This document shows, piece after piece, positions 20,112-26,358 of a stretch of 32,323 nucleotides of DNA (its first letter is position 1; every line of letters begins with the position of its first letter). The stretch is from Candidatus Saccharimonadota bacterium (lineage in GTDB: Bacteria > Patescibacteriota > Saccharimonadia > Saccharimonadales > Saccharimonadaceae), in NCBI GenBank assembly GCA_024682595.1, contig JAIKZA010000034.1, positions 1 to 32,323 of the forward strand, in the 5' to 3' direction. Made by a program: the position numbers and the translations under genes. The notes beneath the pieces were generated by a model. The model saw only the letters and a program-made list of their open reading frames with translations. It was not told the DNA's origin and searched no databases.

Positions 20112-20132
20112 TTATTAGGAATTGATTTGAAG

Positions 20133-20168
20133 AATATTCCACATCTTTATTTGTGGAATATTTTTTTG
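20133..20168 (+). terminator. Intrinsic terminator after ppa
   Basis: aatattccaca-tctttatt-tgtggaatatt with T-run: 11-bp perfect stem. Confidence 0.9.
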
Positions 20169-20212: not shown

Positions 20213-21385
20213 ATGGGTTTTCTAAAAGCTTTTGGTGGGGCCTTGAGCGGCTCTTTTGCTAATCAATGGCTTGAATATATGGCACCGCCGGCAAATATGA
20301 CCGATCATACTTTGATTGCGCGTGCTGTCCCAGTAACTAAGGCTGGTAGTGAGAATAATGACGGTGAAGAGAATGCTAATGTTATTACTAATGGTAGCAA
20401 GTTCTTGGTTCCAGAAGGTACTTGTTTGATTACCGTTGAGAATGGCGGTATTACTGGCGTTATTTCTGATCCAGGTGGATATACTTACACAACGGAAAAC
20501 CTCCCAGAGGCTAAAAGTTTGTTTTCTGGCGACGGTTTCTTTGCGTCAACTTTTGGTCAAAGCTGGAATCAGTTTAAGTTTGGTGGTCAACCAGGCAATC
20601 AACAGTTTGCTTTCTATGTAAATTTGAAAGATATTCTCGGTTTGCGCTATGGTACTCAAAATCCGATTCGCTATAAGGATGCAAACTACGCTAATACAAT
20701 GCTTGCGGTCACGAGCAACGGTACTTATACATTGAAGGTTATTGATCCAATTTTGATGGTAAAGAACTTGATTCCAGTAGACGTAATCTCTGGTCAAGGT
20801 CGCGCCGTGTTTGATCTCGGTGAAGGGGATGGTGGCGTAGAGGATGGCCTCTTTGCAGGTTTCATTGGATCCTTGGCAGCGGCTCTTTCGGCATTTACGA
20901 AGGGTGGCAAATCTATTGATGATATTCAAGGCGGCACAGTTGAGTTCGCAAAGAGCATGAACGAAGCTGTTGAGGCTAATTATCAGTGGGGCACTAAGTA
21001 TGGTCTTCAGATCGTAAATGTACAACCGATGGGTCTCGACTGGGACGAACAATCCGTCGAGCTTATCAACAAGTTCAATACTGGCAACCTTATGCAAGGT
21101 GGCGTTGGTGCTGCTTATGCGCAAACTCAGATTGCCGAAGGTTTCAATGCTGCTGGCAATAATGGCGGCGCCGGTAATATGATGGGCATGGGCATGGGTG
21201 TCGGCATGATGGGTGGCATGGCTGGTATGACTCAGCCGATGGGTGTTAATCCTGTAACGGCTCAACAAAATGCGGCTGTGGCCGCTGCGGGCGCGACTGC
21301 TGCGCAACCAGCTCCAGAAACACCAGCTCAACAAGCTCCGGAAACGCCAGCTGCTGAAGAAGATAATGCTTCGAAAGCGGAATAA
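20213..21385 (+). CDS. SPFH-domain protein, YdjI-like
   Basis: AAGGAGGT Shine-Dalgarno upstream of ATG 20213 (listed start 20153 lies within the terminator); MGFLKAFGGALSGSFANQWLEYM..., C-terminal Gly/Met-rich and Ala/Pro-rich tail. Confidence 0.8.
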   Translation: MGFLKAFGGALSGSFANQWLEYMAPPANMTDHTLIARAVPVTKAGSENNDGEENANVITNGSKFLVPEGTCLITVENGGITGVISDPGGYTYTTENLPEAKSLFSGDGFFASTFGQSWNQFKFGGQPGNQQFAFYVNLKDILGLRYGTQNPIRYKDANYANTMLAVTSNGTYTLKVIDPILMVKNLIPVDVISGQGRAVFDLGEGDGGVEDGLFAGFIGSLAAALSAFTKGGKSIDDIQGGTVEFAKSMNEAVEANYQWGTKYGLQIVNVQPMGLDWDEQSVELINKFNTGNLMQGGVGAAYAQTQIAEGFNAAGNNGGAGNMMGMGMGVGMMGGMAGMTQPMGVNPVTAQQNAAVAAAGATAAQPAPETPAQQAPETPAAEEDNASKAE

Positions 21386-21395
21386 CCAGTAAAAA

Positions 21396-23153
21396 ATGGT
21401 GGTAAAGTCCAAAAATGGGGTGCATCGCTGTCCACATTGTGGCTCCAGCGATGTGTCTCTGGACACAAAAGAGGGGAAATTAAAATGTAATTATTGTAAG
21501 ACGCTTTTTGAAGCCAAGAGCGATAATGCTTTTGGTGGAGTGAAGGGAATGAAGGGGGAGACTCGAGGTGAGGGGACTGAGGATATTGTGCCTGGCGAAG
21601 ATATTGTGAAGACTTTTCGTTGCCCGTCGTGTGGCGCAGAGGTAGTGATTAATACGGAAGAGTCTACGAGTGCGTCTTGTCATTGGTGTAAGCATATATT
21701 TTCGATAAATGAAAAAATATCGAATGGTGCTGTGCCTGATTTAGTTTTACCGTTCAAGATTACGAAAAAAGAAGCTGAAGCGGCTATTATAAAGTGCATC
21801 GACGGCGTGCGCACCGATGTTGATGAGACTTTTTTGACGAATATGAACATAGAAGAGGTGCGTGGCGTTTATTTTCCGTATTTGCTGGTAGACGTCAATG
21901 GTCATTTATCGATGAGAGGGCAGGCGGAGACTAGAAGTTCGGAAAGTAATTCGAAGCTTTCGAAGGTGGAATTGTATGACATTACGCGCGAGTTTGATAT
22001 TTTAGTTGACGATTTAACAGTGGAATCATCAGCTAAAAGATTGAATCAAGATACTTATGTTAATTCTAATAATATAATTAATGCGATTTTGCCGTTTGAT
22101 ACCGAAAATGCGGTTGCTTGGGATGCAAATTATCTCCGTGGTTTTGCAAGTGAAAAACGTAGCGTAAATGTGGATTCCCTAAAGGAGATAGTTGCGTTAC
22201 AGACGGGTGATATTGCGCGCAATCGAGCAAAATACGAGACGGCCAATGAATATGATAGAGGTATTCGGTGGGATAAAGAGCATCTTGGCATCAAGGGAAC
22301 GAAATGGCGGGCGGCATATCTGCCAGTTTGGCTGTTTAGCTATAAGCGACCAGAAGAGTCGGGCGATAGCAGGATTTATTATGTTGCCGTAAATGGACGA
22401 ACTGGTGAGGTGGCCGCTTGCTTGCCGGATAGAAAGTTTAAGAGCATAGGGAGAAGCGAAGCGAAGCTTAAAAAGAAAAATAAGAATGCGACCATAATTA
22501 CAGTAATAGTTTCGACGATAATATTGTTGATTGTATTCTCGTTAGCGAATCTTACTTTCCTAACCGCACTTACGCTTATATGGTTTATGTATATTATGCC
22601 ATTTTGGGCAATTATCTATTCCCAGAAAAAGAATAAAGAGATTGAGGCGCCAAATCTGAACAGAATAACGGCAGTATTAGTAAATGACAACAGTAGACAT
22701 CATCATGAGACTGATACAAAGGCTGAGATAGTCAACCTCAAGAAGCAGGATGATTATATTAGATCATATGTGTCATATATGTCGACCATTAGTGGAAAGA
22801 ATGACGAACGTGTAATTGGGTCATTGTCGACAGGCCGAATGGAGATGCTAGACAGTGAACGCGGTCGTTTTCAAATGGGGCGCGATTATACAAACTATGG
22901 TATGTCCAGGTCGGCGATGGAGTATCGTAAACGAAAAACAACTTCTTCGAGTTTCGATTGGCTTATCATAATCGCTTTTATTATATTGTGTTTGATTGTG
23001 GCAATGGCTGACGGCGGTGGTGGCGGTGGACATTCGTCTAGCTCAAGTTGGGACTCGGGATCGAGTTGGGACTCGGGATCAAGTTGGGATTCGGGTTCAA
23101 GTTGGGACTCGGGGTCAAGCTCTGGCGGTTTTGATTATAGTTATGATTATTAG
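21396..23153 (+). CDS. Zinc-ribbon membrane protein, paralog 1 (TFIIB-type zinc ribbon-like; (SSWDSG)n tail)
   Basis: CPHCGSSDVSLDTKEGKLKCNYC and CPSCGAEVVINTEESTSASCHWC; two TMs; C-terminal GGGGGHSSSSSWDSG repeats. Confidence 0.82.
   Translation: MVVKSKNGVHRCPHCGSSDVSLDTKEGKLKCNYCKTLFEAKSDNAFGGVKGMKGETRGEGTEDIVPGEDIVKTFRCPSCGAEVVINTEESTSASCHWCKHIFSINEKISNGAVPDLVLPFKITKKEAEAAIIKCIDGVRTDVDETFLTNMNIEEVRGVYFPYLLVDVNGHLSMRGQAETRSSESNSKLSKVELYDITREFDILVDDLTVESSAKRLNQDTYVNSNNIINAILPFDTENAVAWDANYLRGFASEKRSVNVDSLKEIVALQTGDIARNRAKYETANEYDRGIRWDKEHLGIKGTKWRAAYLPVWLFSYKRPEESGDSRIYYVAVNGRTGEVAACLPDRKFKSIGRSEAKLKKKNKNATIITVIVSTIILLIVFSLANLTFLTALTLIWFMYIMPFWAIIYSQKKNKEIEAPNLNRITAVLVNDNSRHHHETDTKAEIVNLKKQDDYIRSYVSYMSTISGKNDERVIGSLSTGRMEMLDSERGRFQMGRDYTNYGMSRSAMEYRKRKTTSSSFDWLIIIAFIILCLIVAMADGGGGGGHSSSSSWDSGSSWDSGSSWDSGSSWDSGSSSGGFDYSYDY
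23043..23114 (+). repeat. Four tandem 18-bp coding repeats (SSWDSG x4)
   Basis: tcaagttgggactcggga / tcgagttgggactcggga / tcaagttgggattcgggt / tcaagttgggactcgggg. Confidence 0.93.
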
Positions 23154-23168
23154 GAAGGAGTCGTTTCG

Positions 23169-24746
23169 ATGGCAATAGATAATAAAAAGAATGGCATGAA
23201 TCGCTGCCCTAAATGCGGCTCAACCGAGACTACGCTGAATGTTAAAACTGGAAATTTAAAATGCGAATTTTGTCGTGCGGAATTTAAGGGTAATAAGGTA
23301 AATGCGCCAGGTGGAATTAGTGAACTTAAAGGGGATATAGTTGGTTCTGGAGCGGGGGATATTATACCAGATGAAAGTGTGATTTTGACTCTGAAGTGTC
23401 CAGCTTGTGGTGCTGAGGTTGTAATAAATACGGATGAGGTAACCAGCGCGCGCTGTCACTGGTGTAGGCATAACTTATCAGTAAACGAAAAAATGCCAAA
23501 TGGTGCGGTGCCAGATTTAGTTTTGCCATTTAAGACGGAAAAGAAGTTTGCCGAAGGCAAAATTGACGAGTTTGTTAATAAGAGAAAGTTTTTTGCTCAC
23601 CCGACATTCACGAAGGAATTTAACTCTAATAACGTTTTGGGTGTTTATTTGCCTTATATGATTGTTGATGTAAATGCGCATGCGACATTGTCTGGCGAGG
23701 CGGAGCATTTAGTACGTTCGTATTCGGTTGGTAGCGGTAATGATAGACGAACCTATTATGATGCAGATGCGTATGATGTGTCGCGTGATTTTGATTTGTT
23801 AATTGACGATCTAACGATAGAATCTTCTGAAGATAAATTGAAGCAAGATTTAAAGACAAATACGAATAATGTGATTAATTCAATCTTGCCATTCGATACG
23901 GAAAATTGCGTAGAGTGGAATCCGAGTTATTTGCGTGGTTATGCTAGTGAGAAACGCGATACAAACGTGAGCGTGCTAAAACCTGCAGTGGAAATGCAAT
24001 CAAAAGATATCGCGCGCTACCAAGCGAAGCAAACAATGAAGTTCTATGATCGTGGCGTTAAATGGACTAGTGAATCGCTATCGGTGAAGGGGACGAGCTG
24101 GAAGGCGGCCTACTTGCCAGTGTGGCTTTATAGTTATTATCAGACGGATAAAAAGTTGATGCATTATGTAGCCGTGAATGCACGTACGGGTGAGACGATG
24201 GGCTCGGTGCCGATAAATAAAACACGCTTAATGATTGTTTCGGCGATTGTTGAGGTAATTGGAGTAGTGTTTGGTTTATGGTGGTTTAAATTTTGGATTG
24301 GCGTGGATGTAGATGATGACAACCCGGCGATTTGGGGCTTCTTGGGCTTTACTCCTGGTTTTATTTTCTATTGGATGCAGACGAGTCGTTATCGTAATAT
24401 GGGGGCACGTCATTTGCACGAAAAAGAAACTCGTTCTCAGGCGGAGAATATAAAATCAACAGATACCTTGAAAGAGCACCGCAAGCGTTTGCGTAATTCG
24501 CGCATTCAGGGCGAGAATGGCAACTCGGTTCAGGGCGTACTAGCGAAAAATGGCGAAAAAATGATGGGCGAGAAGATGGCGAACTTTATAGGTATTGGTC
24601 GCATGGCTGGCTCGACGCCGGATCAAACTCCAATTGGCCAGAAGACCATTGCTGACGCAAAAGAAAAAGGGGAAAAAGTTAATACCGTTACTACGATTAT
24701 TGTGATTATAATAATTCTATTTATATTATTTGCAATTATGGGGTAA
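23169..24746 (+). CDS. Zinc-ribbon membrane protein, paralog 2
   Basis: CPKCGSTETTLNVKTGNLKCEFC, CPACGAEVVINTDEVTSARCHWC, PNGAVPDLVLPFK; closely similar to paralog 1. Confidence 0.82.
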   Translation: MAIDNKKNGMNRCPKCGSTETTLNVKTGNLKCEFCRAEFKGNKVNAPGGISELKGDIVGSGAGDIIPDESVILTLKCPACGAEVVINTDEVTSARCHWCRHNLSVNEKMPNGAVPDLVLPFKTEKKFAEGKIDEFVNKRKFFAHPTFTKEFNSNNVLGVYLPYMIVDVNAHATLSGEAEHLVRSYSVGSGNDRRTYYDADAYDVSRDFDLLIDDLTIESSEDKLKQDLKTNTNNVINSILPFDTENCVEWNPSYLRGYASEKRDTNVSVLKPAVEMQSKDIARYQAKQTMKFYDRGVKWTSESLSVKGTSWKAAYLPVWLYSYYQTDKKLMHYVAVNARTGETMGSVPINKTRLMIVSAIVEVIGVVFGLWWFKFWIGVDVDDDNPAIWGFLGFTPGFIFYWMQTSRYRNMGARHLHEKETRSQAENIKSTDTLKEHRKRLRNSRIQGENGNSVQGVLAKNGEKMMGEKMANFIGIGRMAGSTPDQTPIGQKTIADAKEKGEKVNTVTTIIVIIIILFILFAIMG

Positions 24747-24756
24747 TACTCTCTGA

Positions 24757-26358
24757 ATGGTGGCTGAAGAGAAGAAGAAAATTGAAACGCGCGCAAAAGT
24801 TCTGCGTTGTCCAAACTGTGGCGCATCGGATGCCGAATATGATATTTCGGCTGGGGGGTTACGTTGCGCAAAATGTAGAACTATTTTTGTAAGCCCCAAG
24901 ATTAATGCGCTTGGAGGCGTAGATGAGTTGGTGGGCGAAATAAAGAGTGAGGGTGCGGACGATATTGAAGAAAATGACTTCGTAGTGACTTTTAGATGCC
25001 CATCGTGTGGCGCTAACGTGATGTTAAAAAAAGATGCGAAAAATGCGGAATGCCACTGGTGCAGGCATAGTTTGAAAATGTCGCAACGAATCCCGAATGG
25101 GGCGATGCCGGATATGATATTGCCTTTTAAGCTGACGCGAAAAGAGGCATTGTCCAGAATGAAAAGTTTTACTCGCGAACGTAGCCTTTTTGCGTTTAAT
25201 AATTTTGCGAAATCATTAACCGAAAAATCCATAGTTGGGGTTTATTTGCCGTATGCAGTAATTGATGTGCGGGCGCATGTCGAGATGGCGGGGCGGGCAG
25301 AAAAGACGGTGGGGATGCGTTTAATAATGGAGGGGAGTAGATATAAAGATGAACCAAATATAGTGCAAGTTTATGACGTTTCGTCTTTTGGTCTTAAAAG
25401 AGATTTTGACTTAGAGTTAGATGATTTGACAATTGAGGCATCGAGCGAAAAATTAGAGTACGGTTCGCTAATTAATACTACTCATATTATTAATGCTATT
25501 ATGCCATTCGATACTGAGGAGGCAGTAGAATGGGACGCGCGATATTTGGAAGGTTTCTCAAGCGAGAAGCGTGACTTAAATATAAAGCAACTTAATTATA
25601 GATTAAAGTCGCAGATTATGGATATTGCCAAATACAAGATGATGAGTACCACGATTGGATACGATAGGGGCGCATGTTGGGATAAAATAAATATTGAAGA
25701 GCGGGGAATAAAATGGAAAACGGCATATTTCCCAGTGTGGCTATATAGTTACGCAGAAGGCGGAATTAGAAAAAAGAACGCTATTCATTATATTGCAGTA
25801 AACGCAAGAACTGGCGAGACGATGGGGAGCGTGCCGTTAAAAGCGTGGGTAAGGACGATAATCTCGGGTGTTCCTTTACTGATAACATTGTGCTTCATAG
25901 TCGATACGTTTAAGATAGGCTTTGATGGCGGTTTTTCAAAACTGGCTTTTATAAAAATTATTTTTCCGGTGCGAATTTTGGCGATAATTATCTTGATTGC
26001 TATCACTGTATTGACGATGAAACTTGTTAGAAGGAAGACACGGGAATACCGTAATACTCATGCGCGTCATATGTATGAGGTCGACACCTGTATGGTACTC
26101 AAGAACTTGGAGCGAGAAGATGCTTTTGAATATACGAGCACGCGAAGAGATAGAACGATGATAAGCGGATATAATGAGGAAAGAAGGCTGGGGGCACATG
26201 ATTCAATGATGCATGACGATGCGCTTGAAGAGGCGACTGGAATAAAAACTAGTAGTGCGATTATGGCGGCAGGCTATTTGGTTTTGGGTGTATTGTTATT
26301 TGGCATACTTGCGATGTTGGGTTTGCTAGTCGCTTCAGTGGTAGATTTTGCGCACTAA
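24757..26358 (+). CDS. Zinc-ribbon membrane protein, paralog 3
   Basis: CPNCGASDAEYDISAGGLRCAKC, CPSCGANVMLKKDAKNAECHWC, PNGAMPDMILPFK; shares the same blocks with paralogs 1 and 2. Confidence 0.82.
   Translation: MVAEEKKKIETRAKVLRCPNCGASDAEYDISAGGLRCAKCRTIFVSPKINALGGVDELVGEIKSEGADDIEENDFVVTFRCPSCGANVMLKKDAKNAECHWCRHSLKMSQRIPNGAMPDMILPFKLTRKEALSRMKSFTRERSLFAFNNFAKSLTEKSIVGVYLPYAVIDVRAHVEMAGRAEKTVGMRLIMEGSRYKDEPNIVQVYDVSSFGLKRDFDLELDDLTIEASSEKLEYGSLINTTHIINAIMPFDTEEAVEWDARYLEGFSSEKRDLNIKQLNYRLKSQIMDIAKYKMMSTTIGYDRGACWDKINIEERGIKWKTAYFPVWLYSYAEGGIRKKNAIHYIAVNARTGETMGSVPLKAWVRTIISGVPLLITLCFIVDTFKIGFDGGFSKLAFIKIIFPVRILAIIILIAITVLTMKLVRRKTREYRNTHARHMYEVDTCMVLKNLEREDAFEYTSTRRDRTMISGYNEERRLGAHDSMMHDDALEEATGIKTSSAIMAAGYLVLGVLLFGILAMLGLLVASVVDFAH

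What the first reader, a model, noticed from the sequence alone, without database searches (positions are those of the whole stretch)
20213..26358. SPFH (YdjI-like) gene followed by three tandem paralogous double zinc-ribbon membrane proteins
Sequence: three consecutive ORFs of 585, 525 and 533 aa share an N-terminal CxxC...CxxC ribbon, a second CPxCGAxV...CHWC ribbon, P(N)GAxPDxxLPFK, GVYxPYxxxDV, FDxxxDDLTxESS, INxIxPFDTExxVxWxxxYLxGFxSEKR, KxAYxPVWLxSY and xxYxAVNxRTGExxGSVP blocks, then TM segments with divergent tails. Knowledge: in Bacillus subtilis the ydjGHI genes beside pspA encode zinc-ribbon, TPM-type and SPFH proteins linked to membrane-stress responses. Inference: a membrane-stress or membrane-domain scaffold in which the zinc-ribbon partner has been triplicated, possibly forming a hetero-oligomer recruited by the SPFH protein. 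No pspA is seen in this window.
Basis: partly seen in the sequence, partly recalled or inferred. Interest (0 to 1): 0.75.

Follow-up and report, generated by a model that had tools for sequence, protein, structure and literature searches.

The report
SPFH scaffold with triplicated zinc-ribbon anchors
A gut-dwelling Saccharibacterium carries a known two-part membrane scaffold (an SPFH protein plus its zinc-ribbon membrane partner) in a PspA-free form whose partner gene was copied into three specialised versions, one with a repetitive tail predicted to stick out of the cell.

Summary
An SPFH gene (ATG 20213) is followed by three tandem paralogs (A, B, C) of 585, 525 and 533 aa that are 38-44% identical, keep all eight zinc-ribbon cysteines and are under purifying selection (dN/dS 0.03-0.10 against the nearest orthologs). 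They belong to the YdjG-like family (two zinc ribbons, an uncharacterised core, TM segments), almost always paired with a YdjI-type SPFH protein. The PspA stress-response reading is not met: PspA is absent from 45/45 genomes of the genus; TPM (YdjH-like) occurs in only 17/45 and is unlinked in this genome.

The conserved unit is an SPFH-ZR gene pair found sporadically in gut Firmicutes, Bacteroidales, Methanobrevibacter and one Saccharibacteria genus (1 of 313 Patescibacteria genera sampled), so it was probably transferred horizontally. Only the Saccharibacteria multiplied the partner. A, B and C are separate clades older than most sampled species. B resembles the single-copy form. A ends in a third TM plus a [WY]DSGSS-type tail with a conserved GF-x-Y-x-YDY/DW terminus, predicted outside. 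One subclade's B has a ~190-aa outside domain.

Best reading: PspA-independent membrane scaffold with subfunctionalised anchors. New variant of a known kind.

The parts
20129..20166 (+). terminator-like hairpin (15 pairs, loop 8) between ppa and the SPFH gene; probable upstream boundary of the operon
   Evidence: pattern scan, (consensus match only)
20213..21385 (+). SPFH/Band_7_1 protein (YdjI type), 390 aa from ATG 20213; disordered Pro/Ala/Glu-rich C-tail where the Methanobrevibacter relative has SHOCT and Bacteroidales/Vibrio relatives have GYF_2
21396..23153 (+). zinc-ribbon paralog A: double ribbon, core, TM1-TM2, cytosolic K/R-rich loop, TM3, predicted external tail
23043..23119 (+). 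18-bp tandem repeat (4.3 copies) coding the WDSGSS tail of A; the terminal GFDYSYDY-type motif is conserved in 32 loci
23169..24746 (+). zinc-ribbon paralog B, closest to single-copy forms elsewhere; AF2 model pLDDT 83.6, pTM 0.79; helices 351-376, 386-409, 494-524 taken as TM
24757..26358 (+). zinc-ribbon paralog C, the fastest evolving copy, also with a C-terminal hydrophobic segment
26390..27748 (+). cysS (cysteinyl-tRNA synthetase), 31 nt downstream, possibly co-transcribed; context, not part of the module
   Evidence: an ORF of cysS length follows in most loci of the genus

Best explanation
This is a PspA-independent SPFH/zinc-ribbon membrane scaffold. The YdjI-type SPFH protein, which has no membrane anchor of its own, is expected to oligomerise into a ring or cage under the membrane. 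The YdjG-type proteins, with two cytosolic zinc ribbons and a beta-rich core followed by TM segments, are expected to be its membrane-embedded partners. The pair was probably acquired horizontally as a two-gene unit by an ancestor of this gut Saccharibacteria genus, and the partner gene was then duplicated and its copies specialised: B keeps the ancestral form, A carries a third TM and an extracytoplasmic aromatic/Ser/Gly/Asp tail, C diverged fastest. The likely role is organising membrane patches and coupling them to envelope maintenance. Shown: homology, pairing, separate paralog clades, absence of PspA, purifying selection. Inferred: topology, direction of transfer, ring assembly, hetero-oligomer, envelope role.
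For: SPFH directly upstream of the first ZR in about 75 of 77 testable loci across phyla and two domains, and also in Enterococcus, Comamonas, Vibrio, Paracoccus and Tsukamurella records with short-type relatives. SPFH and ZR trees both set the Firmicutes/Bacteroidales/Methanobrevibacter sequences apart from the Saccharibacteria ones. Presence/absence concordance in the genus: G002, G011, G030 and G031 lack both. Patescibacteria survey: full-length family only in the own genus, none in the sampled genomes of other genera of the same family. A, B, C are separate clades; each has dN/dS 0.03-0.10. SPFH-B distances correlate beyond cysS (partial r 0.74; SPFH-A 0.50). The positive-inside pattern puts the ribbons inside and the A tail outside. 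In B. subtilis YdjG and YdjH are needed to bring YdjI and PspA to the membrane, and their loss mislocalises wall synthesis under alkali stress (PMC8581546).
Against: No interaction or localisation data. In B. subtilis two-hybrid tests the anchor for YdjI was YdjH, with YdjG contacting YdjH; here a YdjH-like protein is unlinked or missing, so direct ZR-SPFH contact is an assumption. Within the genus the SPFH of L014 groups with L030/L039/L040 while its A and B group with L012, so the genes are not strictly co-inherited, and linkage alone could raise the distance correlation. The ZR core matches no solved fold. Rooting and direction of transfer are unsettled.
Confidence: 0.62

Rival explanations
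1. A canonical Psp-type envelope-stress module (YdjGHI with PspA), with the zinc-ribbon partner triplicated.
For: YdjG- and YdjI-like proteins present; LemA-TPM genes elsewhere in the own genome.
Against: PspA in 0 of 45 genomes while the model rings in 9 of 14 controls. TPM in 17 of 45, including G030 which lacks the cassette. Gene order differs.
Confidence: 0.12
2. The zinc-ribbon proteins are membrane-tethered transcription regulators; the ribbons bind DNA or RNA polymerase and SPFH controls them.
For: The ribbons resemble TFIIB/TFIIE-type ribbons; the YdjG zinc ribbon was described as known to bind DNA (PMC9239133).
Against: Ribbon matches are short and sub-threshold; many of the most conserved residues lie in the core and near the TMs; a near-universal SPFH partner suggests structure rather than regulation.
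Confidence: 0.1
3. A horizontally spread protective cassette against membrane-attacking agents (phage, bacteriocins, rival toxins) in gut communities; duplication of the partner reflects an arms race.
For: Sporadic, cross-domain gut distribution as a two-gene unit; fast evolution of A and C relative to SPFH.
Against: Almost absent from 2.9 million viral contigs (1 locus, apparently bacterial flanking DNA); only marginal defence-model matches; strong purifying selection; stable chromosomal position beside cysS in most of the genus.
Confidence: 0.1
4. The tailed paralog A is mainly a surface protein (adhesin or matrix) and the others are paralogous leftovers; the SPFH link is ancestral baggage.
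For: A predicted external repetitive tail with conserved terminus in exactly one paralog per locus in 32 loci.
Against: A keeps all cytosolic ribbons and core motifs and usually sits next to SPFH; B and C are under purifying selection.
Confidence: 0.06

Closest known systems
Bacillus subtilis pspA-ydjG-ydjH-ydjI operon (YdjG double zinc ribbon + TM; YdjI SPFH)
   Same: Both protein families; partnership of a Band-7 protein with a double zinc-ribbon membrane protein (PMC8581546; PMC9239133; PMC11237479).
   Different: No PspA in the genus, TPM not linked, SPFH first and ZR after, ZR longer (more TM segments) and usually present in 2-3 specialised copies.
Short YdjG-like proteins with SPFH (Enterococcus SPFH-ZR-TPM; Comamonas, Vibrio, Paracoccus, Tsukamurella SPFH-ZR)
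   Same: SPFH immediately upstream, eight ribbon cysteines, PF(K), GxYxPY and PxW blocks.
   Different: About 345-450 aa, one C-terminal TM, 19-27% identity, single copy at each locus viewed.
Long single-copy SPFH-ZR pairs of gut Firmicutes, Bacteroidales and Methanobrevibacter
   Same: 50-58% identity to B over about 450 aa, same gene order.
   Different: One copy, no third TM or external tail; SPFH carries SHOCT or GYF_2 where examined.
SPFH scaffolds of known structure (stomatin, HflK/C, QmcA-YbbJ, flotillin)
   Same: SPFH fold; SPFH-membrane-partner pairing in principle (QmcA-YbbJ).
   Different: No own membrane anchor evident here; the partner is a zinc-ribbon protein, not YbbJ/NfeD or FtsH.

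Membership tests
YdjI-type SPFH (Band_7_1, PF13421) | PF13421 above the curated cut-off | tested here: met
   49.5 bits vs cut-off 24
YdjI-type SPFH (Band_7_1, PF13421) | SPFH fold | tested here: met
   Foldseek to stomatin/HflK/C/flotillin, E 5e-8 to 1e-3, prob about 1.0
YdjG-like zinc-ribbon membrane proteins | two N-terminal zinc ribbons, shared core, C-terminal TM | tested here: met
   aligned with short-type relatives; 8 Cys and core residues invariant; TMs
YdjG-like zinc-ribbon membrane proteins | direct similarity to B. subtilis YdjG itself | not tested
   its sequence was not in the collections reached; only its described architecture and primer-encoded N-terminus were seen in papers
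Psp/YdjGHI stress system | PspA in operon or genome | tested here: not met
   0 of 45 genomes of the genus
Psp/YdjGHI stress system | linked TPM (YdjH) protein | tested here: not met
   unlinked in own genome, 17 of 45 in genus
Psp/YdjGHI stress system | induction by envelope stress | not testable with these tools
   no expression data
Known anti-phage defence systems (PADLOC) | match to a defence model over most of the protein | tested here: not met
   only marginal partial matches, E no better than 2e-5

The most novel reading that the evidence does not exclude
An envelope-spanning scaffold in a reduced-genome, probably host-attached bacterium: a cytosolic SPFH ring binds three non-equivalent zinc-ribbon anchors, and one anchor displays a FUS-like low-complexity aromatic tail (repeated [WY]DSGSS, conserved GF-x-Y-x-YDY end) on the cell exterior, making an extracytoplasmic self-assembling or host-contact patch organised from within. 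The parent cassette crossed domains in the gut.
Probability: 0.12. Interest if true: 0.75.

Novelty: new variant of a known kind. Interest (0 to 1): 0.45.

Why it matters
It separates the SPFH-zinc-ribbon pair, the conserved unit, from PspA and TPM, which look like lineage-specific additions, and so suggests where to look for the minimal function of YdjG/YdjI-type scaffolds. Methanobrevibacter carries the same unit in an archaeal membrane, which argues that it acts on membranes in general rather than on murein alone (inference). The tandem copies with distinct tails are a natural dissection of an anchor into subunits, in organisms whose cell-surface biology is poorly known.

Tried and rejected
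Phage or defence cargo: 1 locus in 2.9 million viral contigs, apparently flanking bacterial DNA, and weak PADLOC/PHROG matches. Known fold for the ZR core: PDB Foldseek best E 0.07 with TM about 0.06, so the superficial matches to pore formers are meaningless. Conserved third gene in other phyla: neighbours of long-type pairs are not conserved. TPM replaced by the ~190-aa B extension: 0/9 extended-B genomes have TPM vs 15/24 other cassette genomes (Fisher 0.001), but the extended B copies form one clade (so perhaps one event) and the extension has no Pfam match, so this is not claimed. Second PF13421 hit in the genus: an ordinary Band_7 (PF01145) protein elsewhere in the genome (L117), not part of the module.

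Full report
OBSERVATION. The window is one contig of a ~1.04 Mb genome, 97.9% complete, whose nearest public relatives are Candidatus Saccharibacteria metagenome assemblies, many from rumen and gut samples. The four genes are as reported, with intergenic gaps of 10, 15 and 10 nt; the SPFH start is ATG 20213. A 15-pair terminator-like hairpin separates them from ppa upstream and cysS follows 31 nt downstream. The three zinc-ribbon (ZR) proteins, called A, B and C in gene order, share two CxxC...CxxC ribbons, a ~240-residue core and C-terminal membrane segments; pairwise identity is 38-44%. Pfam and NCBIfam see only weak ribbon matches; the core is unmodelled there. The SPFH protein matches PF13421 and folds like stomatin/HflK/C.

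WHAT THE FAMILY IS. Relatives found with the paralogs fall into two types. Short ones (about 345-450 aa, one TM) occur in genomes of one Bacillota phylum, in Bacteroidota, and in Enterococcus, Listeria, Comamonas, Vibrio, Paracoccus and Tsukamurella records; representatives keep the eight cysteines and core blocks at 19-27% identity. They fit what the literature describes as YdjG: two zinc ribbons, an uncharacterised domain related to YpeB, and a TM (PMC11237479). B. subtilis YdjG itself was not available for direct comparison. Long ones (about 460-530 aa, a TM pair plus a conserved cytosolic C-segment) are found in this Saccharibacteria genus and, at about 50-58% identity to B, in mostly gut, rumen or termite-gut Clostridia, Bacilli, Bacteroidales and Methanobrevibacter. 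In sampled surveys the long type is rare: 5 of 152 genomes of the methanogen phylum, two strong long matches in 349 genomes of one Bacillota phylum, only the survey's own centre in 297 Bacteroidota, and one genus of 313 in Patescibacteria (three other genera gave only marginal ribbon-sized matches).

THE PAIR IS THE UNIT. In 71 of 77 testable loci the first ZR has SPFH just upstream on the same strand, usually 3-34 nt away; four more were missed only because a longer antisense frame had been picked. Short-type loci on plasmids of five genera show the same order. Other neighbours are not conserved outside Saccharibacteria. Both trees set a clade of Firmicutes, Bacteroidales and Methanobrevibacter apart from the Saccharibacteria sequences, with Bacteroidales and Methanobrevibacter each grouped and nested among Firmicutes. 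In the genus, genomes without ZR (G002, G011, G030, G031) also lack the YdjI-type SPFH; in G022 and G023 the SPFH is missing only because ZR starts at a contig end. I infer horizontal spread of a two-gene cassette; direction is not settled, because the branch to the short outgroup is very long (4.5 changes per column).

DUPLICATION AND DIVISION OF LABOUR. A, B and C fall into separate groups whose members come from many species of the genus, so the copies predate those species; B is closest to the single-copy forms. Loci hold A-B-C, A-B, A plus an extended B, or a single copy. Each copy is under purifying selection; against orthologs at about 94% SPFH identity, B is about 79-83%, A 66-74% and C 55-79% identical. 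The tails differ consistently. A has TM3 and then a tail with no K/R (539-585: 0 K/R, 7 D/E), built of [WY]DSGSS-like repeats and ending in GF-x-Y-x-YDY or GF-x-YDW; 32 loci have exactly one such protein, while A of L011 and L016 lacks it. The window's B has a third TM with almost nothing beyond it; in one subclade B carries a further ~190-residue predicted external domain with two conserved cysteines and no Pfam match. C also ends in hydrophobic segments. Topology is inferred from hydrophobicity and the positive-inside rule and agrees with helices 351-376, 386-409 and 494-524 in the AF2 model of B. The SPFH tail also varies: SHOCT in Methanobrevibacter, GYF_2 in Bacteroidales and Vibrio, HTH in Comamonas, and a disordered Pro/Ala/Glu-rich tail in Saccharibacteria.

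HOW IT MOST LIKELY WORKS. SPFH proteins of known structure assemble into rings or cages on membranes (general knowledge). B. subtilis YdjI is soluble and needs YdjG and YdjH to reach the membrane; deleting either also mislocalises cell-wall synthesis under alkali stress (PMC8581546). Here PspA is absent from the genus and TPM is patchy and unlinked, so the ZR proteins are the only linked candidate membrane partners of this SPFH. I propose that they anchor the SPFH assembly, with A, B and C as non-equivalent subunits, and that A extends the assembly to the outside. SPFH and ZR-B distances correlate beyond what cysS explains (partial r 0.74; SPFH-A 0.50), which is compatible with contact, but physical linkage and the exchange of SPFH between lineages seen in L014 are alternative causes. 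No step of the mechanism beyond homology, pairing and selection has been shown.

VERDICT. Observation confirmed; family and SPFH link confirmed; PspA-type stress system not met. It is a new variant of the YdjG/YdjI kind: PspA-free, probably horizontally acquired, with a duplicated and specialised anchor. In the searched library no paper joins Saccharibacteria with SPFH or names the TFIIB-type zinc ribbon together with an SPFH domain-containing protein.

Noticed in passing
model m8d495a4a9e3c (window 23169-24743), BFVD search: The ZR-B model matches two giant-virus proteins annotated 'DnaJ-like subfamily C member 3' (Yasminevirus, Edafosvirus; Foldseek E 2.5e-7 and 2.7e-6, prob 1.0), suggesting that the zinc-ribbon/core architecture reached giant viruses or their eukaryotic hosts.
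   Followed up: no
L009 7986-10139 and 11 related loci: In one subclade paralog B is 699-740 aa with a ~190-residue predicted external domain (two conserved Cys, no Pfam match), and paralog A shows only one strong hydrophobic segment where the window A shows three.
   Followed up: partly
L014/L015 vs L030/L039/L040: The SPFH gene of L014 groups with L030/L039/L040 while its adjacent A and B group with L012: likely homologous exchange of SPFH alone.
   Followed up: no
G030, G011, G031: No match to the window's CysRS was found in these three genomes that also lack the cassette, although G030 is 98% complete; a divergent or replaced cysS is possible.
   Followed up: no
L116 3222-4699 (G000:C77): LemA followed by a TPM-domain protein with a Gly/Ser-rich tail, unlinked to the cassette; TPM is missing from all nine genomes with extended B.
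   Followed up: partly
L174 1-1301: A long-type ZR lies in a high-GC stretch at one end of a putative provirus contig (IMGVR_UViG_2667527926), so the long type also exists outside the groups listed above.
   Followed up: no
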